A DNA stretch of 26,861 nt from Planctomycetota bacterium (GTDB lineage Bacteria; Planctomycetota; PUPC01; JACPCR01), in contig JASLXP010000063.1 in the NCBI GenBank assembly GCA_030740295.1, forward strand, positions 1 to 26,861, written 5' to 3'. Within the stretch, counting starts at the first letter, position 1, and the number at the start of each line of letters is the position of its first letter. The position numbers and the translations under genes were made by a program. This document shows, in pieces, positions 668 through 25,696 of this stretch. Below the pieces are notes generated by a model, which saw only the letters and a list, made by a program, of their open reading frames with translations, searched no databases and was not told where the DNA came from.

Positions 668-1771
668 ATGGCAAAACGGGTTCAAAAGGACTCCTCGAAC
701 AAGGAGCCGTCTGAGAATTATCTGCTGCAAGGGGGCAAGTATGGGGCCGTTTTCGTGGCCGTATCCTACCTGCAGGCAGTGCCGGCATGGATTGGCTCAC
801 TCCTGATACATGGCGGGCTGGTGGCCACTTTGGCGGCCATCACCTTCAAGATTGAACAGCCACCGGAGGTCGAGACCGTCGTCGAGGTGGTCATGGCTGA
901 ACCCGATGACGAAGGGAAGCTCGAATACCGCAGCCGCGACCGGCTTAACGTCGAGCAGAATACCGGCGCGCAGTCCTCGCTCAGCGAGGCTATCAAACAG
1001 TCAACCAATGAGTCCCTGCAGACGTCGGCCGAAGTTCAGGACGTCGAGGCGGATCTCATCAGTGTCGATGTCAATGCCGGCATTACATCCAGCCCTTTCA
1101 GTAACCTCAGTTTTGGTTCGTATTCGGGTCCAAGCGGCACTTACGGCGAAGAGATCGCAAAGCTGAAAAAGGTCGGGCTCAACGTGGTGTTTGTGTTCGA
1201 CAGCACAGGAAGCATGAACCGGGTGATCGAAAACGTTCAGCAGGAAATCGATCGGCTGATGGGCGTCCTTTTCGATCTCGTACCCAAGGCCCGTATCGGG
1301 CTGGTGACCTATCGCGATCGAGGCGAAGCATATGTGACGAAAAGCGTCCCTCTCACTCGAGATCGCAGACGTATCCGCGAATGGCTTTTCAAGGTGAGAG
1401 CCGACGGTGGCGGCGATTTGCCAGAAGCAGTCGACAAGGGTCTCGACGTTGCGATAAACATGCGCTGGCAGGCGAGAGCCAAAAAGATCATCCTTCTCTT
1501 CGGAGACGCAGAGCCACATCCGGCCCGCGTGAATTACATCGAGCGTCGCTGCAAGTATTTCAACACGCGCAAGAAGGGCATCATCAGCACCATCGTGACC
1601 GAGCTCGGCGGCCCGGCGACTGGCCCCTTCGAAGACATCGCCGCGGCCGGCGGCGGCGAATCCTTACCCATCACGAGCAGTAAGGAAATCACCAAGAAAC
1701 TGCTCGTTCTTGCCTTCGGCTCCAAGTGGGAGAAACAGTTGAGTGATGAGTTCAAGGCAAGGCTGAAATGA
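668..1771 (+). CDS. vWA-domain protein with TonB-like N-terminal membrane anchor
   Basis: The 367-residue protein has one membrane helix (about 40-60) preceded by a basic, hydrophilic N-terminus, so the bulk should be periplasmic. The helix reads SLLIHGGLVATLAA. S44 and H48 form the SxxxH pattern that energises TonB/TolA helices through ExbB-ExbD. The following segment (61-80) is proline/acid-rich, as after the TonB anchor. A low-complexity linker (about 85-165) leads to a vWA domain (about 170-350) with MIDAS residues D178-S-T-G-S182, a likely threonine at T214 (GLVTYRD), D250 in GGGDLPEA and D280 in LLFGDAEPH. A metal-dependent adhesion fold is therefore expected to be functional. It is first gene of a tight operon and overlaps the next gene by 4 nt. 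There is no clear SD before ATG 668. No TonB C-terminal domain is present. The domain call is strong; the TonB-like role is inference. Confidence 0.85.
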   Translation: MAKRVQKDSSNKEPSENYLLQGGKYGAVFVAVSYLQAVPAWIGSLLIHGGLVATLAAITFKIEQPPEVETVVEVVMAEPDDEGKLEYRSRDRLNVEQNTGAQSSLSEAIKQSTNESLQTSAEVQDVEADLISVDVNAGITSSPFSNLSFGSYSGPSGTYGEEIAKLKKVGLNVVFVFDSTGSMNRVIENVQQEIDRLMGVLFDLVPKARIGLVTYRDRGEAYVTKSVPLTRDRRRIREWLFKVRADGGGDLPEAVDKGLDVAINMRWQARAKKIILLFGDAEPHPARVNYIERRCKYFNTRKKGIISTIVTELGGPATGPFEDIAAAGGGESLPITSSKEITKKLLVLAFGSKWEKQLSDEFKARLK

Positions 1772-2745
1772 CAATGGTTCTCCTTCCTTCACTCGCGCTG
1801 CTCACCTTCAGCGTTCATGCTGACCTGATCGTCCTGAAAAATGGTCAGCGGATAAGGGGAACGATCACTCGCGTGGACGAGAGGCAGGTATCCATCAAAT
1901 CAGGTCCTGGCGAACTGACCTATCCCCGCGCCGCGGTGCAATCGATGGACATGAGTGAGCCGGGAACATTCAAGGGCGCAAAAGAAGCATTCAAGCGCGG
2001 AGACTTTGCCCGCACCCTGAAACTCTTCGATGAGAGCATGAAATACACTAAACATCCGGTCCTGATGATTCATGCGATGGAGGCCAAATCTGTGGCCTAC
2101 CTGAAAAGCGGACAGGCCGGCAATGCGCTCAAAGAGTGGGCACCGCTTGTCGAAAAAAATCCAAAATACGCCGCTCTCACTCTTGCCGATTTTCTAATGA
2201 ATGCTTCCACCTGGGATTCTTCCATCGCCTCTGTGATCGGAAGCACGAGCGCAACAGGAGCCGAGACGATAGCGGCCATCGCCGCGCTGAAGGCCATGGC
2301 CTCGATCAACGAAAAGAACTGGGCTGAAGCCGAAAGTGCAATCGCCGGTCTGCGAACCGGCCCAACACAACTCGCCAAAGATGCGGCAGAGTACATTCAG
2401 GCGAGACTTTTCATCGGCCAGGGAAAATCGAAACAGGTGATCGATGAATTTTACCAACGGGCCGAGAGCCTGACTGGCCACGGCCGGGCCTACGGCTTTT
2501 ATGGCGTCGGCCTTGCCCACCTCCGGGAACAACAGGGCGAAAAGGCCATGCTCGCCTTTCTTCGGGTGGGTCTGCTGCATCCTGAGCTCGCCGCACTGGC
2601 GGGCGATGCCCTGTACGAAGGCGCGGTCATCCTTGAAGAATCACAGCCCAAAGCGGCGGCAAACTTCTATAAACAGATCGTTCGAAACCACCTCAGTTGC
2701 AGCCATTGGGAGGACGCGAAAAAGCGCCTGGCCAAGCTGCAGTAG
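1768..2745 (+). CDS. Secreted TPR protein with N-terminal small beta domain
   Basis: The 325-residue protein starts with a short signal peptide (1-18, ending SVHA before D19). A beta-rich segment follows (about 19-62, LIVLKNGQRIRGTITRVDE and a PRAAV end), of the SM-like type often placed before TPRs in planctomycete-like proteins. The rest (about 70-325) is alpha-helical, with TPR-like helix pairs such as AKEAFKRGDFARTLKLFDES and AKSVAYLKSGQAGNALKEW. It is probably a periplasmic scaffold. Its ATG overlaps the vWA stop (ATGA), so it is translationally coupled; a second ATG lies two codons on. ExbB follows after 16 nt. Partners are unknown. Its position between the vWA transducer and the ExbB/ExbD genes suggests it serves the same complex. 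Confidence 0.8.
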   Translation: MTMVLLPSLALLTFSVHADLIVLKNGQRIRGTITRVDERQVSIKSGPGELTYPRAAVQSMDMSEPGTFKGAKEAFKRGDFARTLKLFDESMKYTKHPVLMIHAMEAKSVAYLKSGQAGNALKEWAPLVEKNPKYAALTLADFLMNASTWDSSIASVIGSTSATGAETIAAIAALKAMASINEKNWAEAESAIAGLRTGPTQLAKDAAEYIQARLFIGQGKSKQVIDEFYQRAESLTGHGRAYGFYGVGLAHLREQQGEKAMLAFLRVGLLHPELAALAGDALYEGAVILEESQPKAAANFYKQIVRNHLSCSHWEDAKKRLAKLQ

Positions 2746-2751
2746 GGCCAC

Positions 2752-2757
2752 GGAGAA
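2752..2757 (+). promoter_or_regulatory. Ribosome binding site deciding the ExbB start
   Basis: GGAGAA with the GGAG core 6 nt before ATG 2762. The open frame extends upstream to 2501 inside the TPR gene, but this site together with the normal family length supports 2762 as the start. Confidence 0.6.
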
Positions 2758-2761
2758 CTTA

Positions 2762-3505
2762 ATGACCACCCCTCTTTCAAAATCGTTCAGACTCGGACTC
2801 TTCTTAACGGGCTTCATCGCACTGATCCTGATTCTTGAAGTGCCTCTGATGGCCGAAGACGGGGGCGAGCCGGAAGCTCCGACCATCAGCATTCTGGATT
2901 TCGTCAGGAAGGGGCGGGCCATTGGATACGTCCTCATCCTGTTGAGCTTTGTCAGCGTCGGCTTTGCCATCGAGCACGCGCTTACCATCAGCCGCGGCAA
3001 TCTCATTCCGAGGGGTTTCCTGGAAGAGGTCAATCAGCTCCTTGACGCAAAACAGTACGACGAAGCCGCCAAACGCTGCGAGAATAATCGGTCCTTTGTC
3101 GCCGGTATTATCGCGGCCGGACTCTCCGAACGGGGCAAAGGAGTCATGGGCTACATCGATATGCAGACCGCGATGCAGGAGGCCGGTGAAGCCCAGGCCG
3201 GAAGGTTCTATCGCAAAATTGAAGTGCTCAGCGTCGTGTCACGAGTCGCACCCATGCTCGGATTGCTCGGGACGGTCACCGGAATGATCCGGGCCTTTGA
3301 GACCATCGCCCGGGCGGAGTCAGCTCCTAATCCGGCCGACCTCGCCATCGGTATTTCAGAGGCGCTGGTGACCACTTGTATGGGCCTAATCGTGGCCATC
3401 CCCACTTTCTGTATTGTCTCGTTCTTCCGCAACAAGCTCGACGGATTGGTCAGTGAAGCTGAAGCCACAGTCGAACACATGATGAGCCGATTCAAAAAGG
3501 GATAG
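2762..3505 (+). CDS. MotA/TolQ/ExbB proton-channel family protein
   Basis: The 247-residue protein forms the pentameric inner-membrane channel subunit of ExbB/TolQ-type motors. There is an N-terminal hydrophobic segment (about 10-30, ending PLMAEDG) that may be a signal peptide or an extra helix. A helix lies at about 52-72, then a cytoplasmic loop (about 75-155), then the two conserved pore helices at about 158-183 and 200-223. The signature VAPMLGLLGTVTGMIRAF (162-179), the SEALVTTCMGLIVAIP block (199-214) and the TT pair that helps proton transfer are all present. The start is set by the RBS at 2752 and normal family length. It is followed after 1 nt by ExbD, the usual arrangement. The specific partner is not TonB by sequence; the vWA protein two genes upstream is the best candidate. 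Confidence 0.93.
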   Translation: MTTPLSKSFRLGLFLTGFIALILILEVPLMAEDGGEPEAPTISILDFVRKGRAIGYVLILLSFVSVGFAIEHALTISRGNLIPRGFLEEVNQLLDAKQYDEAAKRCENNRSFVAGIIAAGLSERGKGVMGYIDMQTAMQEAGEAQAGRFYRKIEVLSVVSRVAPMLGLLGTVTGMIRAFETIARAESAPNPADLAIGISEALVTTCMGLIVAIPTFCIVSFFRNKLDGLVSEAEATVEHMMSRFKKG

Positions 3506-3506
3506 G

Positions 3507-3938
3507 ATGAAGAGCACTCGCCCAAAAACAGTCACCGACAGCTCACCGGATATGACGCCGTTCATCGACTGCGTCTTTCTGTTGATTGTCTTCTTCATGA
3601 CCGTTTCCCGGTTCTCGACCCAGGAATACGAGACGCTCAAGCTCCCGAACGCCAAGTCCGGCCAGGAGAAACTGCCAAAGAAGAAAAAGAAGCTCGTCAT
3701 CAATCTCAATGTAGACGGCGATACCATCATCGGTGGCCGCCATCTCAACCCGCTCCAACTCGAAAGCCAGCTCACAATGGAAGCCCGTCTCAATGACGGC
3801 CCCGAAAACGTCATCGTCATCGTCCGGGCCGACCGGCAAGCCAGATTCGAATACATCCAGGACCTGATGACCACATGCGCCCGAGCCGGCGTCTGGCAAT
3901 TGTCGTTCGCGGTCGTGAGCGAACCGGTTCCTGATTAA
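3507..3938 (+). CDS. ExbD/TolR family protein (first copy)
   Basis: The 143-residue protein has the standard ExbD layout. A short cytoplasmic N-terminus precedes one helix (about 17-35, MTPFIDCVFLLIVFFM) containing the proton-carrying aspartate D21. A periplasmic TolR-like domain follows (about 60-140), with strands such as LVINLNVDGDTIIGG and VIVRADRQARFEYIQDLM. A lysine run (about 58-63) follows the helix. The ATG lies one nucleotide after the ExbB stop, with AGGG just upstream, so the two genes should be cotranslated. It differs clearly from the second ExbD at 4024 outside the membrane helix. The two may form a heterodimer in the ExbB pore or serve alternative complexes. Confidence 0.92.
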   Translation: MKSTRPKTVTDSSPDMTPFIDCVFLLIVFFMTVSRFSTQEYETLKLPNAKSGQEKLPKKKKKLVINLNVDGDTIIGGRHLNPLQLESQLTMEARLNDGPENVIVIVRADRQARFEYIQDLMTTCARAGVWQLSFAVVSEPVPD

Positions 3939-3945
3939 CGCGGCC

Positions 3946-4015
3946 TGAATCCTTTGAATCCTGAGCCCCGTTGAATCTTGAATCCCGCTGAATCCTGATT
4001 CTGATCCCTGATCCC
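3946..4015. repeat. TGAATCC/TGATCCC heptanucleotide array inside the operon
   Basis: TGAATCC or a one-base variant occurs at 3946, 3955, 3972, 3979 and 3989. A six-base TGATTC (3996) and two TGATCCC units (4002, 4009) follow. The array fills the only sizeable gap (85 bp) of an otherwise overlapping operon and ends 8 nt before the second ExbD start. No SD is visible there. Confidence 0.65.
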
Positions 4016-4023
4016 AGCACTAA

Positions 4024-4470
4024 ATGCGCTTAAACCGCCCACCAAGAGTCGAAAACGATGAAATCGAAATGTCGTCCATGATCGACATCGTTTTCCAGCT
4101 CCTGATCTTCTTTATGGTCGGAACGAATTTTTCCGTGCCAGAAAAGAAGATGGTCACCGATCTGCCACGCTCCGGGGCGCCGCCGGTGGAGCAGAAGAAA
4201 CTCGAGCTCATCAAGATTTATCTGAAGTACGCCGAAGGACGCTCGGGCATCGAGATCACCTGCAACGATGAGCCGCTTGGGGAAGACTGGGGCGCCCTGT
4301 TCGGCATGATGAAACAGATAGCGGAAATCGACCCTGAAGTGCCAGTCGTCATCGATGCCGAAAAGTCGATGTCATTCGGTTACGTGGTCAAGGCCATGGA
4401 TACCAGCAAGCAGGCGAATCTGAAACAGATCGCTTTTTCGGCAGGGAAGGCAGAGAAACTGAACGAGTAA
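4024..4470 (+). CDS. ExbD/TolR family protein (second copy)
   Basis: The 148-residue protein has the ExbD/TolR layout. The helix (about 17-37, MSSMIDIVFQLLIFFMVGTNF) carries the conserved aspartate D21 at the same index as the first copy. The periplasmic domain (about 58-146) contains KIYLKYAEG, PLGEDWGALFG and VPVVIDAEKSMSFGYVVKAMD elements. The following TPR gene starts within its stop codon (TAATG). The upstream 85-bp gap is a heptanucleotide array without an SD sequence, so its translation may depend on coupling or on a leaderless mode. Two non-identical ExbD proteins next to one ExbB are common in planctomycete-like genomes, and their division of labour is unknown. The family call is secure; the function of the pair is inferred. 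Confidence 0.92.
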   Translation: MRLNRPPRVENDEIEMSSMIDIVFQLLIFFMVGTNFSVPEKKMVTDLPRSGAPPVEQKKLELIKIYLKYAEGRSGIEITCNDEPLGEDWGALFGMMKQIAEIDPEVPVVIDAEKSMSFGYVVKAMDTSKQANLKQIAFSAGKAEKLNE

Positions 4471-6971
4471 TGAAACGCATCCTCCCTTTCCTAATCATTA
4501 CTTCGGCGCTTACCGCCGAAACGCTCACGCAGGAAGATGAACGATTCATCCACCTCCTGACCGAACAGGGGCTTCACAAGCTTGCGTACGATTTCGCCAA
4601 AGACCGCCTCGCCAGGGGTGGGCTCGAGGACGATATCGAAACCCTTCTCCAACTCCGCGTCGGTAATCTCGCCCTGACCCTGGCTTCTAAGACCATCGAC
4701 CCGGAAGAGAGAGATGCATATACCCGAGAATCAGAACGGATGATCAATGTGATCCTGCCAAAGGCTGCCAGGATCACAAAGCTGCCAAAATCTGCGATCG
4801 AGTTCATCCGCCTGCTCGTCAACCGCGGCAACATGGCGCTCACCGAGTGGCGCAATTCCAAACGCGAAACTGACCGAAAGACAGCCTATCGCCTCTGCGC
4901 GCTCGCGCTCGCGCATGTCGATACCATGCTTGATACTTTAACCGAAAAGATTGCGGACATAGAAGCGACCGCAGACGAGGTGCAGCTCGAAGGCAATACG
5001 GAATACAAGCAACTCGATTCGTGGGTAGCCGAAGGGAATTACCGCAAGGCGTGGGGATCGTTCTACCTGGCCCAGACACTCAAGAAAGACAGCCCCGAGC
5101 GCCCTCCTTTGCTCGAACAGGCCGATGAGTTCTTCGACGAATTCACGGGCGAATACATGAACAACATCGTCGTCGTGAACTGCTTTCTCGGTAAGGCCCA
5201 GGTCATGTATGAGATGGGCGATATCAGCAAAGCCATCAAAATCCTCGGGCCTATCAAGCGCGGCACCGCACCGAAGGTTCTCGTCGACCAGGCAAACGTC
5301 CTCCGCATCAACTGGATGCAGGAGCAGAAACGTTACATGGGCGCCATCGAGATGATCGACGAGATCCTCGAACCCTACTCCTCAGATAAAATGATGGGGA
5401 ATGCCGAAACGCTCATGTTGCTCAAGCAGGCCGAGTGTTACTTCATGCGCTACGCCGAAGAGAACCGCCCAGCCGACCGAAAGCGGGGAATCCAGATCTC
5501 AGAAAGAGTTTCGGCGAAGGGCGGCGCCTGGCGTAATCAGGCCCTCTCGCTCGTGACCCGTTATCCGGCCGGCGGGCTGGTCAAGACGGACAAGGGGCCG
5601 TTGGAAGTCTGGATCGAGGCCGAGAAGCGTTATGCAAGCAAACACTACCCGCGAGCGGAAATGCTCTACTCGAAGGTCATAAAAGATAAAGACAGACTCA
5701 CTGATCCGACCCTTCTGCCGCCGGCCTATTTTCGCCGTGCTTCGTGCCAGTACCTGATGAATGATTTCAGACTTTCCGCGATATCATTTGAAAAATTCCT
5801 TCGCCAGTATTCGAAGCACGAGCTTGCCGAGAAGGCAGCCTTCCTGGTGGCCCAGTCTTACTATTTCATCTACCTGCGAAGCCAGGACGAAAACGACGGC
5901 GCCAAAGCTCTCAGCGTGATGAAGAGTTTCACGACCAGCCATCCGAAATCGAAGGACATCTCCCGAACGAGCATGGCCAGCGGCGATACGCTCTCCCTCA
6001 TGGGCCGGCACGAAGATGCGCTCGAAGTTCTGAAAAAGGCAAAAGATGTTGAAGGTGGCGAGGCCGTCATCCTTCTCACCCGCCGTCGCCAGCTCGATGA
6101 AGCGCTTCAGGATGGAGATGCCGGCGCCAAGGCCAAAGCCAGAAAACTCGCGGCAGACATGACCACCTACATGGATCGCCGCGGCGGGCAGGGCACCTGG
6201 GTGGCCCAGGTCCAACTCAGCCTGGCGGAGATGTACATGTCCGCCGCGTTCAATCAGGCAGATGACGCGCTCGATCTTCTTGAGAACTTCAGCCAGATCC
6301 ACTCCGGCGTGCCCAGCCGCCTGAAGCTCCAGGCCATTCGGAATCGGCTTACCCTGTACTGCCGGCAGAAACAGTGGGCCGCGGCCGAAGTCGAACTCGT
6401 GAAGTTTCTCGACCGGCCATCGACTTCCGAGGCGAGCGGCGCGGCGCTGCTGCTCGCCGCGCAAGGCATGAATACCGCGGGACGCGCCGCCCTGGGCAAA
6501 AAAAAATACAAAGACAGCACCCGTTACTTTCGCCGCTCCGCCGCGGCTTATGAAGCACTCCTCGAGTGGATGGATGCAAATCAATTGGACGACGCGCAGA
6601 AACGCGAGGCACACATTCGAGCCATCCAGATCTATCTTTACGTCCAGGATCCTGAAAAGGCCGGTCCGCACCTCCAGGCCATCTACGACCCCAATCGCAA
6701 AGAACACTTCATCGAGCGCGGTATCGCGCTCGTCGAACAGATGCGAAAGAATTACAGGGAAGCGCTCCAACGCTGGCAGGCCATTGAGAAGGGGGTCGAA
6801 CGCCGAACGAACGACTGGTTCGAGGCCCGCTTCTACATCATCAAGGATATGGCCGAGGCCGGACAGAAAGAGAAGGCGATCAAGCTCCTCAAATTTACGA
6901 AGGTGCTCTCGCCCGGCCTGGGCGGCGCCAAATGGAAGCCGAGGTTTCTGAAACTGGAGAAGGAGTTGTAA
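4470..6971 (+). CDS. Large secreted TPR-repeat protein
   Basis: The 833-residue protein has a signal peptide (1-16, MKR then a hydrophobic core, ending ALTA before E17). The remainder is almost wholly helical repeats. TPR-like units include AEMLYSKVIKDKDRLTDPTLLPPAYFRRASCQYLMN (described by its start, residue about 394), ISFEKFLRQYSKHELAEKAAF and AGPHLQAIYDPNRKEHFIERGI. No catalytic motif was seen. It is likely a periplasmic scaffold or outer-membrane-linked partner of the motor encoded upstream. Its ATG shares one base with the second ExbD stop (TAATG), which shows operon membership and fixes the start. The stop codon TAA runs straight into a heptanucleotide array. Which component it binds cannot be read from sequence. 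Confidence 0.85.
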   Translation: MKRILPFLIITSALTAETLTQEDERFIHLLTEQGLHKLAYDFAKDRLARGGLEDDIETLLQLRVGNLALTLASKTIDPEERDAYTRESERMINVILPKAARITKLPKSAIEFIRLLVNRGNMALTEWRNSKRETDRKTAYRLCALALAHVDTMLDTLTEKIADIEATADEVQLEGNTEYKQLDSWVAEGNYRKAWGSFYLAQTLKKDSPERPPLLEQADEFFDEFTGEYMNNIVVVNCFLGKAQVMYEMGDISKAIKILGPIKRGTAPKVLVDQANVLRINWMQEQKRYMGAIEMIDEILEPYSSDKMMGNAETLMLLKQAECYFMRYAEENRPADRKRGIQISERVSAKGGAWRNQALSLVTRYPAGGLVKTDKGPLEVWIEAEKRYASKHYPRAEMLYSKVIKDKDRLTDPTLLPPAYFRRASCQYLMNDFRLSAISFEKFLRQYSKHELAEKAAFLVAQSYYFIYLRSQDENDGAKALSVMKSFTTSHPKSKDISRTSMASGDTLSLMGRHEDALEVLKKAKDVEGGEAVILLTRRRQLDEALQDGDAGAKAKARKLAADMTTYMDRRGGQGTWVAQVQLSLAEMYMSAAFNQADDALDLLENFSQIHSGVPSRLKLQAIRNRLTLYCRQKQWAAAEVELVKFLDRPSTSEASGAALLLAAQGMNTAGRAALGKKKYKDSTRYFRRSAAAYEALLEWMDANQLDDAQKREAHIRAIQIYLYVQDPEKAGPHLQAIYDPNRKEHFIERGIALVEQMRKNYREALQRWQAIEKGVERRTNDWFEARFYIIKDMAEAGQKEKAIKLLKFTKVLSPGLGGAKWKPRFLKLEKEL

Positions 6972-6992
6972 TGCGTAATACGTAATGCGTAA
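6972..6992. repeat. Heptanucleotide array (3 units) touching a stop codon
   Basis: Three 7-bp units, TGCGTAA, TACGTAA and TGCGTAA, start at the first base after the TPR stop codon. The stop TAA itself fits the same phase. The array is in inverted orientation relative to the one at 7087-7149. Confidence 0.7.
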
Positions 6993-7086
6993 GCAGAAAC
7001 CTGTTGCGAAGCTTCTTCAGCCGGTCCCTGGCAGGTCTGAGTTATTCGGAGAATCCCGCTGAAGCCATTACTCTAACTTTCAGCCA

Positions 7087-7149
7087 TCTACGTATTACGC
7101 ATTACACATTACGTATCATTCATTACTCTTTACGCATTACGTATTACGC
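7087..7149. repeat. Heptanucleotide array (9 units) ending exactly at a start codon
   Basis: Nine consecutive 7-bp units in perfect register, consensus ATTACGY. The exact units are TCTACGT, ATTACGC, ATTACAC, ATTACGT, ATCATTC, ATTACTC, TTTACGC, ATTACGT and ATTACGC. The next base is the A of the LmbE-family ATG (7150), so there is no SD. Together with 6972-6992 it forms an inverted pair bordering the gap between the two genes. Confidence 0.8.
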
Positions 7150-7950
7150 ATGCACATCCTTGTTATCGGCGCCCATCCTGATGATCCCGAAGTTGCTGTC
7201 GGCGGCACTGCCATAAGATTCTCCGACCGCGGCGATCACATAAAATTCGTCACGGTCACGAACGGCAACAAGGGCCACTTCAGCGACGAATACAAAGCCG
7301 ACCCGGACAAACTGGTGGCACGCCGCATGGCCGAAGCGCAGGCCGGTGCGCGAGTGGCAGGCGCCGAATTCGAATGTCTCGGTGTCCCGGACGGAGAAGT
7401 GTTTGTAACTCAGGAGCTCACGGAAAAACTGGTTGAAGTCATCCGGAATTTCGGCCCGGAAGGCGAAGGCCCTGACCTTGTCCTCATCAACCGCCCCTGT
7501 GATTATCACCGCGATCATCGGTACACCGCGCAGTCAGTCCTCGATGCCTCGTACATGCTGACGGTGCCTCTCTACTGCCCGCACGTCCCACACCTCATGA
7601 GGATGCCCGCCTTCGCCTACTGGGCAGACCGGTTCACCGAGGAGGGCCTTTTCAGGGCGGATATCGTGGTTGATATCTCAGATGTTCTCGAACGAAAGGC
7701 CGAGGCCATCGCGGCGCACGAGTCTCAGTTTTTCGAGTGGCTGCCATACAACAGCCGTTCGCCGAAGCTCCCGTCCGATGGCAGCCTGCGGATGGAGGCT
7801 GTGATGAAATATGTCCACAATCGCTGCAGGAGGGTGGCAGCAGTTTCCGGTGACGCGGTGGAAGGGATCGAATTTCCTGAAGCATTTCAGATCAGTGAAT
7901 ACGGCGCGCAGCCGAATGAGGAAGAGCTGGCCGTGCTGTTTCCTGGATGA
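7150..7950 (+). CDS. PIG-L/LmbE-family deacetylase
   Basis: The 266-residue cytoplasmic protein belongs to the zinc-dependent N-acetyl(glucosaminyl) deacetylase family. The AHPDD motif (8-12) supplies zinc ligands H9 and D12 and the probable base D11. The downstream HRDH motif (120-123) supplies the third ligand, H123. A GG pair and TVTNGNKGH follow, as in the family. The start is well fixed because the first beta strand, ILVIGAHPDD, begins at residue 3. It has no Shine-Dalgarno site: the nine-unit heptanucleotide array ends at the base before the ATG. An oxidoreductase gene follows after 82 nt on the same strand, so both may act on amino sugars or glycosides. The substrate is unknown. Family assignment is strong. 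Confidence 0.92.
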   Translation: MHILVIGAHPDDPEVAVGGTAIRFSDRGDHIKFVTVTNGNKGHFSDEYKADPDKLVARRMAEAQAGARVAGAEFECLGVPDGEVFVTQELTEKLVEVIRNFGPEGEGPDLVLINRPCDYHRDHRYTAQSVLDASYMLTVPLYCPHVPHLMRMPAFAYWADRFTEEGLFRADIVVDISDVLERKAEAIAAHESQFFEWLPYNSRSPKLPSDGSLRMEAVMKYVHNRCRRVAAVSGDAVEGIEFPEAFQISEYGAQPNEEELAVLFPG

Positions 7951-20529: not shown

Positions 20530-21183
20530 TCAGTCTGTTTCAGGTGTCTGTTTCTCGTCAGAGCCCTTGGCACTTGCAGCGATGAATTCTGTGATGAATT
20601 CATCGACCGGCGCGATGAATGGGGGCTTGTTCCTCACCACCAGGCGGCCGTCCACGAATCTCAACAGGGTGCCATTAATCTCCCAGTCAGCCTTAGGTAT
20701 AAGATCCTTCACCGCTTCAAAAAGTGCCTGCTCTGCACCCGTGGTCAGGATGCCACGACAGTCATAAGCCCTGGTCACGGTGGTTGGCTCGAAACGGTCA
20801 GGTGAAGCAATGAATAAGGCGCCGTGCCGGTAATCGTAAGTGAGGTTGGTCAGGCGGAGAATCCACTCCAGCGCGGCAACAGTTTTCATATCACCAACTT
20901 TCAGGGTGACCGGGTGATCATCACCAGCAAGGGCCGCGGGGTCGACGACGATATTCGTACCAGTCAGACCTATCAGGTGCGAAACCACATCCTTCAATGG
21001 TGTGTCGACAAAATCGAAATGGATCCGCTTCTCGAGAGCCTTCTCTATCTTCTGTTGCCATTCCGGTTTCTTTTCCTTCCTTGCTCTGTGCGTTGGCTTG
21101 GCCTTGATCAAAACATCAGGCCCGTTCTCGCTGAACGCAGCGGACGGGATACAGAAGACCATCATCAGGCTCAGCGTCCTCAT
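20530..21183 (-). CDS. Secreted STN-domain (secretin/TonB short N-terminal-like) protein 2
   Basis: The 217-residue protein has a signal peptide (1-18, ending AAFS before E19). A basic spacer (KKPEWQQKIEKALEKR) precedes an STN-like domain (about 53-130): IHFDFVDTPLKDVVSHLIGLTGTNIVVDPA, then VTLKVGDMKTVAALEWILRLTNLTYDYRHGALFIA. The last part has the RLVVRNKP element shared with its neighbour. Secretins and TonB receptors use this domain, but no secretin pore or barrel is present here. It is a tandem paralogue of the upstream gene (shared KPEWQ, FDFV-TP and TLK-DMK blocks) and overlaps it by 4 nt (ATGA), with AAGGA as SD. Its role is probably periplasmic protein interaction. Confidence 0.7.
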   Translation of the reverse strand: MRTLSLMMVFCIPSAAFSENGPDVLIKAKPTHRARKEKKPEWQQKIEKALEKRIHFDFVDTPLKDVVSHLIGLTGTNIVVDPAALAGDDHPVTLKVGDMKTVAALEWILRLTNLTYDYRHGALFIASPDRFEPTTVTRAYDCRGILTTGAEQALFEAVKDLIPKADWEINGTLLRFVDGRLVVRNKPPFIAPVDEFITEFIAASAKGSDEKQTPETD

Positions 21184-22070
21184 TTTGCAGGGTCCTTCAA
21201 TGTCTTTGATTGGTTGCTGCCTGAACTGAATTCATTCATGAATCTGTCGACCTCGCGGACCAGCCATTGCTCATTCCTGACAACGAGCCTTCCCTCTATG
21301 AATCGCAGGAGAAGACCATTCTTTTCCCATTCAGCGGCAGGATGGAGGGCCTGAATGGTTTGCAGCAGTTGCATTTCTGTGCCAGGCCGAATGAGCTTTC
21401 GACAGTCGAAAACTCTCGTTATCAGAACAGGCATCTGCCTGTCCCTCGAGGTGATAGTGATGGGTTTCCAGTGTCGGATGTCCCGAGCCGTTGCGGCGCG
21501 TGTAATCCTCCAAACCAGGCCAGCCTGATCCATGATCAGATCCATGGCGTGACGAAGTTTCATGTCTACGGCTTTGAGAGTGATTGGAAGGTCATCCTTG
21601 CCGACAGCTTTCGGATCGAGGGAACAGCCTGTGCCTGTCAGGTTCGTCACGAATGCCACAACATCGACGATTGGTGTGTTCACAAAATCAAAGGAGATTC
21701 TCTTCTTCATCTGCTCCTCGAGTTGCTTCTGCCACTCCGGCTTTGTGCCGTGCGGATTTGACCGTGTGGGGGCCTTGATGGCTTTGACAGAGAATGTCTG
21801 CTGGTCGTGTGTTGCCTTTTCCGCGGACACTCTCGGCACGGCGAGATGTAGTGGCATGATCGGATTCTTCTCCGCTTTCAGATCGCGTATGACTAATGGC
21901 GATTCACCCCGCGCCATCATCGATTTCTCATCCACGATGAGATACAGGAAACGCGCGGTCGGCGCCAGGTGCACCGTCAGACCTTCGCAGCGAAAGTCTC
22001 CTTCTGTTTCGCCCGAGTGGAGCGATGCAGTGCAGGCGAAGGCAAGATGAACCAGGAACGGCAGATTCAT
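21180..22070 (-). CDS. Secreted STN-domain protein 1
   Basis: The 296-residue protein has a signal peptide (about 1-19, MNLPFLVHLAFACTASLHS). An extra N-terminal region (about 20-110) is absent from its paralogue. An STN-like domain follows (about 124-205), with RISFDFVNTPIVDVVAFVTNLTG and LPITLKAVDMKLRHAMDLIMDQAG. The C-terminus contains RVFDCRKLIRPGTEMQLLQTIQALHPAAEWEKNGLLLRFIEGRLVVRNE, matching the paralogue. No TonB box, barrel or secretin domain is seen. It lies 76 nt after the HtrA gene, in the same direction. The start has no SD; an ATTACTC/CTCACTC-type word repeat lies just upstream. The function is unknown, but the linkage to HtrA suggests periplasmic quality control or signalling. 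Confidence 0.7.
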   Translation of the reverse strand: MNLPFLVHLAFACTASLHSGETEGDFRCEGLTVHLAPTARFLYLIVDEKSMMARGESPLVIRDLKAEKNPIMPLHLAVPRVSAEKATHDQQTFSVKAIKAPTRSNPHGTKPEWQKQLEEQMKKRISFDFVNTPIVDVVAFVTNLTGTGCSLDPKAVGKDDLPITLKAVDMKLRHAMDLIMDQAGLVWRITRAATARDIRHWKPITITSRDRQMPVLITRVFDCRKLIRPGTEMQLLQTIQALHPAAEWEKNGLLLRFIEGRLVVRNEQWLVREVDRFMNEFSSGSNQSKTLKDPAK

Positions 22071-23659: not shown

Positions 23660-25696
23660 TCATCGCTTCGTCTCTGAGCCACCAAGGCTTTCAAGAACTT
23701 TCTTTGCACCGGCATGGCCGGGCTCGATCCTGAGCGTCCGGGTAAACGATTCAATTGCCTCCGGCAAGCGATTCATTTTGAGATAGGAATGGCCCAATCG
23801 AAAGTGATTGTCTGCGTGATTTGGCTGGATCTTGACGAGGCGGGCGTAGTTAATCACTGCGAAATTATAGTTGCCTTCTTTGAAGTAAATCTCGCCAAGG
23901 CGGCGGGACCCGTGCGGATCTTTGGGACGCAGTTCGCGGGCCCGTTCGTATGCTTGAATCGCTTTCGCTGGCATGGCCAGTTTTTCGGAGATGTCACCGA
24001 ATGCCCGTAAAGCTTCAAACGAACCGGGCGCGACGGTAACGGCCTTGTTGACCACCGGAAAGGCACGGGAGGGGGCCCCATCAGCTTCGAGGGTTCTCGC
24101 CAGCCCGACCAGTCCTTCCAGGCTGTTTGGATGTTTCTGCAGGACACCCGTAAAGATGAAACCGGCCTGTTCAGTGTCGCCCCTCGCGAGAAGCACCTGT
24201 CCTTTGACCAGATTGGCGCCCATGTCATCCGCGTTTTTCTTCAAGACTGATTCACAGAGCTCATCGGCTTCCTTCCATTCGTCGCGAGCTGCCAGGGCTG
24301 CAGCCAGATTCACAGCGACGTCATCAGAATCCGGCTGGTTCTCTTGCACCTGGAGGAGAAGCGGTGCCGCACGTTTGGGCTTCGCTTTCCGCAGGTAGTT
24401 GGTGGCAAGGTTGAACTGTGCCTTGGTGTTTTCCGGTGAACGTTCCAGCGCATTCCGCCAGAGCAGCTCTGAATCGCTCCACAGGGAGTTTCTGTGAATG
24501 GTCAGGCCCGCCAGGCTCAACAGTGCCAGGGCAGCCAGCATCCTGGCCGCGGCATTCCACTTGATGAACGAGACTAAACCGATCGAAAGCAGGCCGCATG
24601 CGGCAATCGAAGGGAGATAAAAATAACGATCAGCCACCAGTGTGCTGGTCATCAGAATCCCTGACACCGGCAGGAGGCAGACTCCAAGCCAGGCAAACAG
24701 CAGTAGAGGGCTCGAATGCGCCTTACCAGCCTTTACCACTTTATGAATGAGCCACACGGTCACCAGCCAGGCGAGGAGGACGCGGAGGCTCAGGATTGGC
24801 AGTTGGATCGGATAGGCAAGGCTGAGATGGCTCGGGAACAGGAACTGCCAGAAGTAGTGAGCATAAACCGGAATGATATTGAGCAGGCGTTCCGGCCCGG
24901 GGCTGCCGCCAGTGGTGCCGCCTTTGACCGCGTAGTACGCATGGATCAGCGTGAGGATCAGCCCCGCCGCCAGAAAGGGCAGCCAGTCGTTGATGCATTC
25001 GCGCATCTTCTGTTTCGGATCGCCTTCGCCGCTGAAGCGGGACAGATCAAGAGCGATCACTAATCCGGGAAAGATTATCGCGGTAGCTTTACACAGGCAG
25101 GCCATGATGAACAGAAACATCACGGCCAGGTTTGGCAGTCTGTCGCGAGCCTTCGGATGGCACCTGATGAGCAACGCTGAGAGCAGGAAGAAACCGGACA
25201 GCAGATCCTTCCGGCCGGAAATCCAGGTGACCGATTCCACGTGAATCGGGTGGCAGGCAAAGAGGGCCGCGCCCAGCAGCGTCACCCGCTGCTCCAGTCC
25301 AATTGCGCTCAAGAGGAAGTAGACGAGCAGCACATTAAGTGTGTGGAGAATCAGATTCGTCACGTGAAGCTGCTGCTCGATGCCATCGAAGTAGCCGCCG
25401 CCGCCTTTCCGCATATCAAGAATGCTGTAATCGTAAATGATGCTGAGGTCGCGCAGGGGAAGGAATGCCTTGCGCCATTCACCTTTCTGCGGGGCCGAGA
25501 ATGCATGCGCGATGTTGTCTGCCGAAATGCCGTGAACGTGCCGGTTGTATTCGATGCCGTACTGGTCGTCGTAATCAATGAACGGATTCGGAATCGCGTT
25601 GACGAAACAGACGTAGCAGATGGCTACGAGCAGGCAGGCGTCGCGGCTCGTCCTTCGCCAGGAAGGTGGCTGCGGGTTCGCGTCCTCGTGAGTCAT
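23660..25696 (-). CDS. TMTC-like GT-C-fold membrane protein with C-terminal TPRs
   Basis: The 678-residue protein has about nine to eleven membrane helices (about 20-420). The first periplasmic loop carries the acidic motif FIDYDDQYG (about 38-46), as in GT-C glycosyltransferases and TMTC proteins. Further elements are LRDLSIIYDY, FACHPIHVESVTWISGRKDLLSGFF (a TMTC-typical stretch) and ADRYFYLPSIA. About seven TPR units fill residues 425-675, including KAIQAYERARELRPKDPHGSRRLGEIYFKEG. TMTC proteins are protein O-mannosyltransferases in eukaryotes; bacterial homologues are probably lipid-linked-sugar transferases acting at the periplasmic face. The gene overlaps the upstream beta-helix gene by 4 nt (ATGA), with AAGGGG just before. 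Donor and target are unknown. Confidence 0.85.
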   Translation of the reverse strand: MTHEDANPQPPSWRRTSRDACLLVAICYVCFVNAIPNPFIDYDDQYGIEYNRHVHGISADNIAHAFSAPQKGEWRKAFLPLRDLSIIYDYSILDMRKGGGGYFDGIEQQLHVTNLILHTLNVLLVYFLLSAIGLEQRVTLLGAALFACHPIHVESVTWISGRKDLLSGFFLLSALLIRCHPKARDRLPNLAVMFLFIMACLCKATAIIFPGLVIALDLSRFSGEGDPKQKMRECINDWLPFLAAGLILTLIHAYYAVKGGTTGGSPGPERLLNIIPVYAHYFWQFLFPSHLSLAYPIQLPILSLRVLLAWLVTVWLIHKVVKAGKAHSSPLLLFAWLGVCLLPVSGILMTSTLVADRYFYLPSIAACGLLSIGLVSFIKWNAAARMLAALALLSLAGLTIHRNSLWSDSELLWRNALERSPENTKAQFNLATNYLRKAKPKRAAPLLLQVQENQPDSDDVAVNLAAALAARDEWKEADELCESVLKKNADDMGANLVKGQVLLARGDTEQAGFIFTGVLQKHPNSLEGLVGLARTLEADGAPSRAFPVVNKAVTVAPGSFEALRAFGDISEKLAMPAKAIQAYERARELRPKDPHGSRRLGEIYFKEGNYNFAVINYARLVKIQPNHADNHFRLGHSYLKMNRLPEAIESFTRTLRIEPGHAGAKKVLESLGGSETKR

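What the first reader, a model, noticed from the sequence alone, without database searches (positions are those of the whole stretch)
668..6971. Candidate motor: TonB-like helix fused to vWA, next to ExbB, two ExbDs and two TPR proteins
Seen: six same-strand genes with overlaps or gaps of -4, +16, +1, +85 and -1 nt. The vWA protein's only helix contains SLLIHGG with the SxxxH pattern, in the same local context as Escherichia coli TonB (SVCIHGA, then a Pro/acid-rich stretch). Known: S16 and H20 of TonB couple it to ExbB-ExbD. Inference: this is an energy transducer whose receptor-binding domain has been replaced by a metal-dependent vWA domain, so force would act on a vWA ligand, perhaps one of the TPR proteins, and not on a TonB-box receptor. 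I know of no characterised system with this arrangement, but could not search.
Basis: partly seen in the sequence, partly recalled or inferred. Interest (0 to 1): 0.8.

Follow-up and report, generated by a model that had tools for sequence, protein, structure and literature searches.

The report
TonB-like motor protein with vWA head
A planctomycete gene cluster appears to encode a membrane motor that pulls, through a TonB-like helix, on a protein with a von Willebrand A head instead of the usual TonB head; the helix evidence is strong, but this kind of system was already predicted in a 2025 paper and its task is still unknown.

Summary
In detail: window 668-6971 holds six same-strand genes, vWA, TPR1, ExbB, ExbD, ExbD, TPR2. 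The TonB-like reading passes the tests I could run. In 157 non-redundant vWA relatives the helix His is kept in 146 of 150 and the Ser in 128 of 149; His at other helix columns is 3 of 3187. A profile of this helix puts 15 of 19 TonB helices above the 99th percentile of 178 control helices. ExbB and two ExbDs stand beside the vWA gene in 9 of 81 loci, window included, and TPR2 follows in 7 of 7 that reach far enough. In the other 72 loci, 65 with a Zn-ribbon-like motif or a long N-terminus (FHA-type in about 20), no ExbBD was found nearby. The idea is not new: Williams-Jones et al. 2025 (PMC12204202) predict vWA force transducers beside TolQ, two TolRs and a TPR gene. Docking, ligand and task are untested. 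New member of a published, uncharacterised kind.

The parts
668..1771 (+). vWA transducer, 367 aa: short N-terminus, TonB-like helix, disordered linker, vWA domain
   Evidence: Pfam VWA_4 5.6e-11; model; PDB fold matches to TEM8/CMG2 and integrin beta A-domains
797..811 (+). S44-L-L-I-H48 motif codons in the transmembrane helix
   Evidence: S44 128 of 149, H48 146 of 150 (4 Asn) in 157 non-redundant relatives; His at other helix columns 3 of 3187
1199..1417 (+). MIDAS-type metal site of the vWA domain (D178-x-T180-x-S182, T214, D250)
   Evidence: D178, T180, S182, D250 invariant and T214 at least 90% in A2, 60 sequences; that these are MIDAS positions is recalled knowledge
1768..2745 (+). TPR1, 325 aa, signal-peptide-like start, small N-terminal domain then TPR-like repeats
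   Evidence: no Pfam hit; NCBIfam Lepto_7_Nterm 2.6e-6, YbgF 3.3e-5, both below cut-off; found only in window and L001 of 81 loci
2762..3505 (+). ExbB/TolQ-like motor pentamer subunit
   Evidence: PF01618 3.6e-28; T171, T205, P214, S62 invariant in 9 linked ExbBs
3507..3938 (+). ExbD/TolR-like axle subunit 1
   Evidence: PF02472 8e-22; ion-site Asp D21 in 17 of 18 linked ExbDs
4024..4470 (+). ExbD/TolR-like axle subunit 2
   Evidence: PF02472 2.6e-23; Asp present
4470..6971 (+). TPR2, 833 aa, signal-peptide-like start, all-helical repeat protein, candidate partner
   Evidence: weak TPR/YbgF hits; counterpart after the motor genes in 7 of 7 linked loci that reach far enough, found from the window's TPR2 alone at E 2.1e-9 or better; model nearly all-helical

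Best explanation
An ion-driven 5:2 motor (ExbB pentamer around a dimer of the two ExbDs) is coupled, through Ser44 and His48 of the vWA protein's single helix, to the vWA domain in the periplasm, in the way TonB and TolA are coupled. The roughly 90-residue disordered linker lets the vWA domain reach away from the membrane, where it binds a partner through its metal site, most likely the co-encoded exported TPR2 protein, and pulls on it. Shown here: gene content, helix conservation, TonB-like profile, motor residues, vWA fold, linkage. Inferred: docking, heterodimeric axle, metal-dependent binding, TPR2 as ligand. Unknown: the process driven (adhesion or surface movement as in Agl-Glt, or envelope transport).
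For: S44/H48 are the two most conserved of the mostly occupied N-terminal columns; His elsewhere in the helix 3 of 3187. The vWA-helix profile scores 15 of 19 TonB N-termini above the 99th percentile of 178 control helices. The one TonB_C protein found in the genome of the nearest relative (L001) has SFLLH where the vWA protein has SLLIH. The exchanges seen in the vWA family (S to A, H to N) also occur among those 19 TonBs. ExbB and two ExbDs adjacent in 9 of 81 loci; 0.047 ExbB-family genes expected within 1 kb downstream on the same strand. Motor residues kept. SHLS is S-3x-H-6x-L-3x-S and contacts a Ser of ExbB TM1, linked to a TM3 Pro (PMC12905483 passages): the window has S44, H48, L55, T59.
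Against: The last Ser of SHLS is Thr here and column 59 is poorly kept (T or S in 56 of 156). 4 of 19 TonB helices do not pass the control limit. The Trp that the review names on ExbB TM1 is not seen in the window's ExbB. 72 of 81 loci show no ExbBD nearby. TPR2 is only 17-19% identical between the window and the five more distant linked loci. No complex was modelled. No Pfam TonB model hits the N-terminal 110 residues at E up to 0.1.
Confidence: 0.85

Rival explanations
1. Envelope hydrophobe transport: the motor-vWA-TPR2 module powers movement of lipid-like cargo between membranes, together with an RND (MMPL) pump, a LolA-like carrier (DUF1329) and an outer-membrane barrel (DUF1302).
For: Near the module: MMPL in L051, DUF1302 in L021, DUF1329 plus a LolA_like lipoprotein in L056, LolA_like lipoprotein in L074: 4 of 9 linked loci, 4 of the 7 that are not of the window type, against 0.6-0.7 expected from the genome-wide densities (rough P 0.001-0.002; the families were chosen after seeing the neighbours, so this is not a clean test). 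AmeABCD (PMC6394551 passages) combines DUF1302, DUF1329 and an RND pump.
Against: None of the four families was listed within the fetched flanks of L061, L062, L063 or L001 (against the vWA places; the lists were cut at their weak end). G001, the genome of L001 and nearest to the window, has no DUF1329, DUF1302 or LolA_like match and 6 MMPL matches. The larger sample I wanted did not complete (and nine earlier tries).
Confidence: 0.2
2. Agl-Glt-like surface machine: one TolQ, two TolRs, a TonB-like bitopic transducer and exported TPR proteins, used for adhesion, gliding or movement of surface polymers.
For: The Myxococcus core holds AglR plus AglQ and AglS (two ExbD/TolR), GltG (FHA, helix, TonB-like; two-hybrid contact with AglR) and exported TPR proteins GltD and GltE (PMC3169522 passages): an inventory close to the window's. 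About 20 of 72 unlinked relatives of the vWA protein carry an FHA-type cytoplasmic domain, as GltG does.
Against: The Glt core also has GltC, not seen here. No gliding-named NCBIfam model hits the TPR proteins; TPR1 has no counterpart in the seven other linked loci; no GltD or GltE sequence was compared; no motility evidence. The FHA-bearing relatives are not the linked ones.
Confidence: 0.3
3. The vWA protein is an ordinary inner-membrane-anchored vWA protein (BatA or YfbK-like) and the ExbBD genes next to it act with something else.
For: 72 of 81 loci show no ExbBD near the vWA gene; vWA domains are common.
Against: A plain anchor gives no reason for a His kept in 146 of 150, for top-ranking similarity to TonB helices, or for SxxxH in only 2 of 178 other anchors.
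Confidence: 0.07
4. The vWA protein replaces ExbD as the axle in the pore (the second vWA family of PMC12204202).
For: Such a family is described beside TolQ.
Against: Two ExbDs with the ion-site Asp are present; the vWA helix has S/H and no Asp; the paper says that the pore family lacks SHLS and co-occurring tolR/exbD.
Confidence: 0.02

Closest known systems
vWA force transducers (Williams-Jones et al. 2025, PMC12204202; predicted, Tichowtungia family)
   Same: Helix with SHLS-type motif and conserved His, disordered linker, vWA C-terminal domain; adjacent TolQ-like, two heterologous TolR-like and a TPR gene; Planctomycetes named among the hosts.
   Different: Here the vWA gene comes first rather than downstream of the motor genes; an extra TPR1 lies between it and ExbB; the last SHLS Ser is Thr.
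TonB-ExbB-ExbD and TolA-TolQ-TolR
   Same: Motor subunits, ion-site residues, helix with S-3x-H, flexible linker.
   Different: vWA domain in place of the TonB/TolA C-terminal domain; two different ExbD genes; TPR partner.
Myxococcus AglRQS with GltD/E/G/C core (PMC3169522)
   Same: One TolQ, two TolRs, one bitopic TonB-like transducer, exported TPR proteins.
   Different: GltG has FHA and a TonB domain; homology of the TPR proteins not tested; GltC not seen.

Membership tests
vWA force transducer family (PMC12204202) | single helix with SHLS motif and conserved His | tested here: met
   S44 128 of 149, H48 146 of 150; L55 kept in 95 of 154; last position Thr here (partial)
vWA force transducer family (PMC12204202) | disordered linker of about 100 residues | tested here: met
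   low-pLDDT stretch about 67-156
vWA force transducer family (PMC12204202) | C-terminal vWA fold | tested here: met
   Pfam, Foldseek E 1.9e-9 to TEM8
vWA force transducer family (PMC12204202) | synteny with tolQ, two heterologous tolR and a TPR gene | tested here: met
   different gene order
vWA force transducer family (PMC12204202) | predicted docking on the edge of the motor via His | not testable with these tools
   Structure prediction takes one chain only
vWA force transducer family (PMC12204202) | sequence homology to the Tichowtungia founder | not tested
   founder sequence not fetched
TonB/TolA | TonB-type N-terminal helix | tested here: met
   profile puts 15 of 19 TonB N-termini above the 99th percentile of 178 controls; TolA helices not tested
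TonB/TolA | TonB_C/TolA C-terminal domain | tested here: not met
   vWA instead
5:2 ion motor (ExbBD/TolQR) | two TM Thr and a TM3 Pro in ExbB, TM Asp in ExbD | tested here: met
   T171, T205, P214 invariant in 9 linked ExbBs; D21 in 17 of 18 linked ExbDs
Agl-Glt core | GltD/GltE homologues | tested here: inconclusive
   no gliding-named NCBIfam hit; direct comparison not done
pore-type vWA (second family of PMC12204202) | no ExbD; TM Asp in the vWA helix | tested here: not met
   two ExbDs present; no Asp in the vWA helix

The most novel reading that the evidence does not exclude
The window type is one branch of a vWA transducer family, one strong copy per genome in the 20 genomes looked at, in which most of the sampled Planctomycetota members carry a cytoplasmic FHA-type or Zn-ribbon-like domain in front of the TonB-like helix. 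They would be force transducers whose coupling to a remotely encoded ExbBD motor is switched by a cytoplasmic signal (phosphothreonine for FHA), a vWA counterpart of the FHA-bearing GltG. The section of PMC12204202 that I read in full does not mention such domains; its supplements were not seen.
Probability: 0.35. Interest if true: 0.65.

Novelty: new member of a known kind. Interest (0 to 1): 0.4.

Why it matters
It would show that the ExbBD motor can be tied to a general adhesion-type domain and not only to TonB or TolA heads, so one ion motor could drive tasks other than nutrient uptake or outer-membrane upkeep. The conservation and profile tests here add sequence-level support to what was published as a structure-based prediction without reported deletion phenotypes, and they single out TPR2 as the partner to test first.

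Tried and rejected
Pfam scan of the N-terminal 110 residues for TonB: no hit, so I built a helix profile and a control set. TPR2 against the large protein set: two close relatives only (100% and 81%). TPR2 fold search: generic repeat proteins, TM-scores about 0.2, no information. TPR2 against plasmids: no match. vWA against PDB sequences: one weak match. TolR-like axle reading rejected (two ExbDs present).

Limits of the counts. The search for related loci kept the best 80 of 109 relatives found with two vWA peptide patterns, so the census is of vWA-close relatives only. Of 201 vWA sequences 9 were dropped (L076, L080, P0006, P0024, P0038, P0067, P0094, P0108, P0110: too little sequence before the vWA motif, or motif not matched), then 35 by 85% identity; 7 of 157 have a gap at the His column. 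In one search sequences were cut to 190 residues before the motif, so the class 'short, not seen linked' (66) is mostly database proteins of unknown neighbourhood, some with a cut Zn-ribbon or FHA domain; its name says nothing about them. One search gave 26 TonB_C matches, 20 became loci, 19 were used: L114's 189-aa frame has no TM-like N-terminal segment. The 19 frames agree in strand and length with the table. The control set has near-copies. The ExbB profile found 13 of 20 PF01618-positive places at E 1e-5, the same 13 that the ExbD profile found; 3 more were weak and 4 missed, none with an ExbD hit, so a motor gene without ExbD could be overlooked in the 72 loci. The TPR2 profile also hits another TPR gene of the window (23660-25696, E 5e-9), so it is not fully specific.
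Full report
What is there. Pfam confirms vWA, MotA_ExbB and two ExbD domains; TPR1 has no Pfam hit and only weak NCBIfam hits, TPR2 weak TPR hits. Both TPR proteins begin with signal-peptide-like stretches (read by eye). The window's own genome is not held; its vWA protein is 99% identical to P0001 and 88% to P0002, named Planctomycetota, and locus L001 (Planctomycetota MAG, 88%) carries the same six genes in the same order.

The vWA protein. A model from 60 sequences (mean pLDDT 72.8) shows one long helix 24-62, a low-confidence stretch of about 90 residues and a vWA domain. The fold matches TEM8/CMG2 and integrin beta A-domains (best Foldseek E 1.9e-9). D178, T180, S182 and D250 are invariant and T214 at least 90% conserved in that alignment; that these are the MIDAS positions, in a DxTxS form, is recalled and comes from no call.

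Is the helix TonB-like? In a first set of 21 sequences S44 and H48 are invariant. In 157 non-redundant sequences H48 is His in 146 and Asn in 4 of the 150 with a residue there, and S44 is Ser in 128 of 149; these are the two most conserved of the columns for residues 1-165 that hold a residue in more than half of the sequences. His at the other helix columns (38-59) is 3 of 3187. Among 178 other ORFs of the same loci with an N-terminal TM-like segment, 2 carry SxxxH. By class: linked 7 of 7 for both residues; Zn-ribbon-like motif 42 of 57 Ser and 53 of 57 His; long N-terminus 27 of 27 for both; the remaining 66, mostly database proteins of unknown neighbourhood, 52 Ser and 59 His with 7 gaps. 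The published SHLS motif is S-3x-H-6x-L-3x-S (PMC12905483, passages); the window has S44, H48, L55 and T59, three of four positions exactly and Thr for the last Ser. Across the family L55 is kept in 95 of 154 and T or S at 59 in 56 of 156.

Profile test. TonB_C proteins were sought in the genomes of the eight linked loci (26 matches, 20 loci given); 19 N-termini were used. A profile of the vWA helix, built from 149 sequences, scored 15 of the 19 above the 99th percentile of the 178 control helices; the top 14 scores were all TonBs and 4 TonBs did not pass. Ten of the 19 carry SxxxH, among them the one TonB_C protein found in the genome of L001 (SFLLH). Six others have Asn at the His position, and four have Ala at the Ser position (read), the same exchanges seen in the vWA family. 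Common descent rather than convergence is not proved by so short a stretch.

Linkage. Of 81 loci (80 fetched plus the window), 9 have an ExbB and two ExbDs beside the vWA gene on the same strand: window, L001, L021, L051, L056, L061, L062, L063, L074. By record title L056, L062 and L063 are Thermodesulfobacteriota, Syntrophobacteria and Desulfobacteraceae, L021 and L074 Deltaproteobacteria, L051 and L061 unnamed bacteria. The gap to ExbB is under 100 bp (or an overlap) in seven and about 990 bp in the window and L001, where TPR1 lies between. TPR2 follows in 7 of 7 that reach far enough; L021 and L051 end just after ExbD2. The six TPR2s outside the window were found with the window's TPR2 alone at E 2.1e-9 or better, though five are only 17-19% identical. 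From the 20 genomes (138 MotA_ExbB matches in about 118 Mb) one expects 1.1 such genes over all flanks and 0.047 within 1 kb downstream on the same strand; near-copies (window/L001, L061/L062) leave seven independent rows. In the other 72 loci no ORF matched the ExbB or ExbD profile even at E below 5; 54 of the 72 have at least 2 kb on both sides. As a control, the same profiles found 13 of 20 PF01618-positive places of 12 other genomes, the same 13 for ExbB and ExbD; the other 7 had no ExbD hit and may be MotA-type, which I did not check. On a tree of 82 vWA domains the window groups with P0004 and P0005 (100/100) and, weakly (89/62), with the other linked rows; L037 lies inside that branch but its contig ends 114 bases after the vWA gene, and the branch also holds database proteins of unknown neighbourhood. 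So every genome locus of that branch that can be judged is linked, and none was seen linked in the other branches.

The unlinked relatives. Of the 72, 38 have a double CxxC motif before the vWA domain and 27 a long N-terminus. Pfam at E 0.001 finds FHA in 17, the related Yop-YscD_cpl domain in 20 and Zn_ribbon_4 in 18 of the 72.

Motor. In nine linked ExbBs T171, T205, P214 and S62 are invariant, which I take, by position in the alignment and the ExbB/TolQ matches, for the channel Thr residues, the TM3 Pro and the TM1 Ser described for ExbB/TolQ (PMC12905483 passages); the matches do not reach TM1, so S62 rests on position alone. The TM1 Trp named there is not evident. The ExbD Asp is present in 17 of 18, L051 ExbD1 having Asn.

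Prior art. Williams-Jones et al. 2025 (PMC12204202; [quoted passage not shown] A search on vWA, force transducer, TolQ and ExbB listed six papers, of which only this one uses vWA more than once. So the window is a further member. Its gene order differs (vWA first) and it has an additional TPR gene.

What it may do. (a) The inventory resembles the Myxococcus Agl-Glt core: AglR, two TolR-like AglQ and AglS, the bitopic TonB-like GltG that contacts AglR in a two-hybrid test, exported TPR proteins GltD and GltE, and GltC (PMC3169522 passages). GltG has a cytoplasmic FHA domain, as about 20 of the 72 unlinked relatives do. A 5:2-motor review likens GltG/GltJ to TonB and describes a pulling model (PMC9389320 passages). 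(b) In four of nine linked loci the neighbours belong to a hydrophobe-transport set (MMPL in L051, DUF1302 in L021, DUF1329 and a LolA_like lipoprotein in L056, LolA_like lipoprotein in L074). Against genome-wide densities 0.6-0.7 of the seven loci not of the window type would show this by chance, 4 do; the families were picked after seeing the neighbours. The genome of L001 has no DUF1329, DUF1302 or LolA_like match, so for the window this is only a lead. The larger census did not complete (last try).

Copy number. Each of the 20 genomes looked at, all chosen because they hold a relative, has one strong vWA-transducer match; further matches in 7 of the 20 are much weaker and do not cover the helix region.

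Verdict. Observation confirmed; interpretation supported for the transducer, untested for docking and ligand; already in print as a prediction; new member of a known kind.

Noticed in passing
unlinked loci among L002-L080, e.g. L043, L048, L012 (FHA) and L008, L029 (Zn-ribbon): 38 of 72 unlinked relatives have a double CxxC motif and 27 a long N-terminus (FHA-type by Pfam in about 20) in front of a similar helix and vWA domain, with no ExbBD found nearby.
   Followed up: partly
L051:1-3054: An MMPL (RND) reading frame runs without a stop into the helix-vWA protein: either a fusion or an intergenic stretch without stops on a short contig.
   Followed up: no
L051:3942-4409: First ExbD of this locus has Asn where the ion-site Asp is expected; the only such case of 18.
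   Followed up: no
L056:8912-10708 and L074:13022-14803: A lipoprotein-like protein with a C-terminal LolA_like domain follows TPR2 directly in two linked loci.
   Followed up: partly
window 6967-7151: After the end of TPR2 lie 14-nt-spaced ATTACGCATTACGTA-type repeats and inverted arms (29 nt at 90%, 18 nt at 100%); four matches to an 18-nt unit where none is expected.
   Followed up: partly
window 1795-1941: TPR1 begins with a small domain resembling the Leptospira LA_0442/LA_0875 N-terminal domain (NCBIfam 2.6e-6, below its cut-off).
   Followed up: no
window 20530-22070 (-): Two adjacent ORFs share a similar stretch by eye; the one scanned (21180-22070) has no Pfam family over its cut-off.
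   Followed up: no
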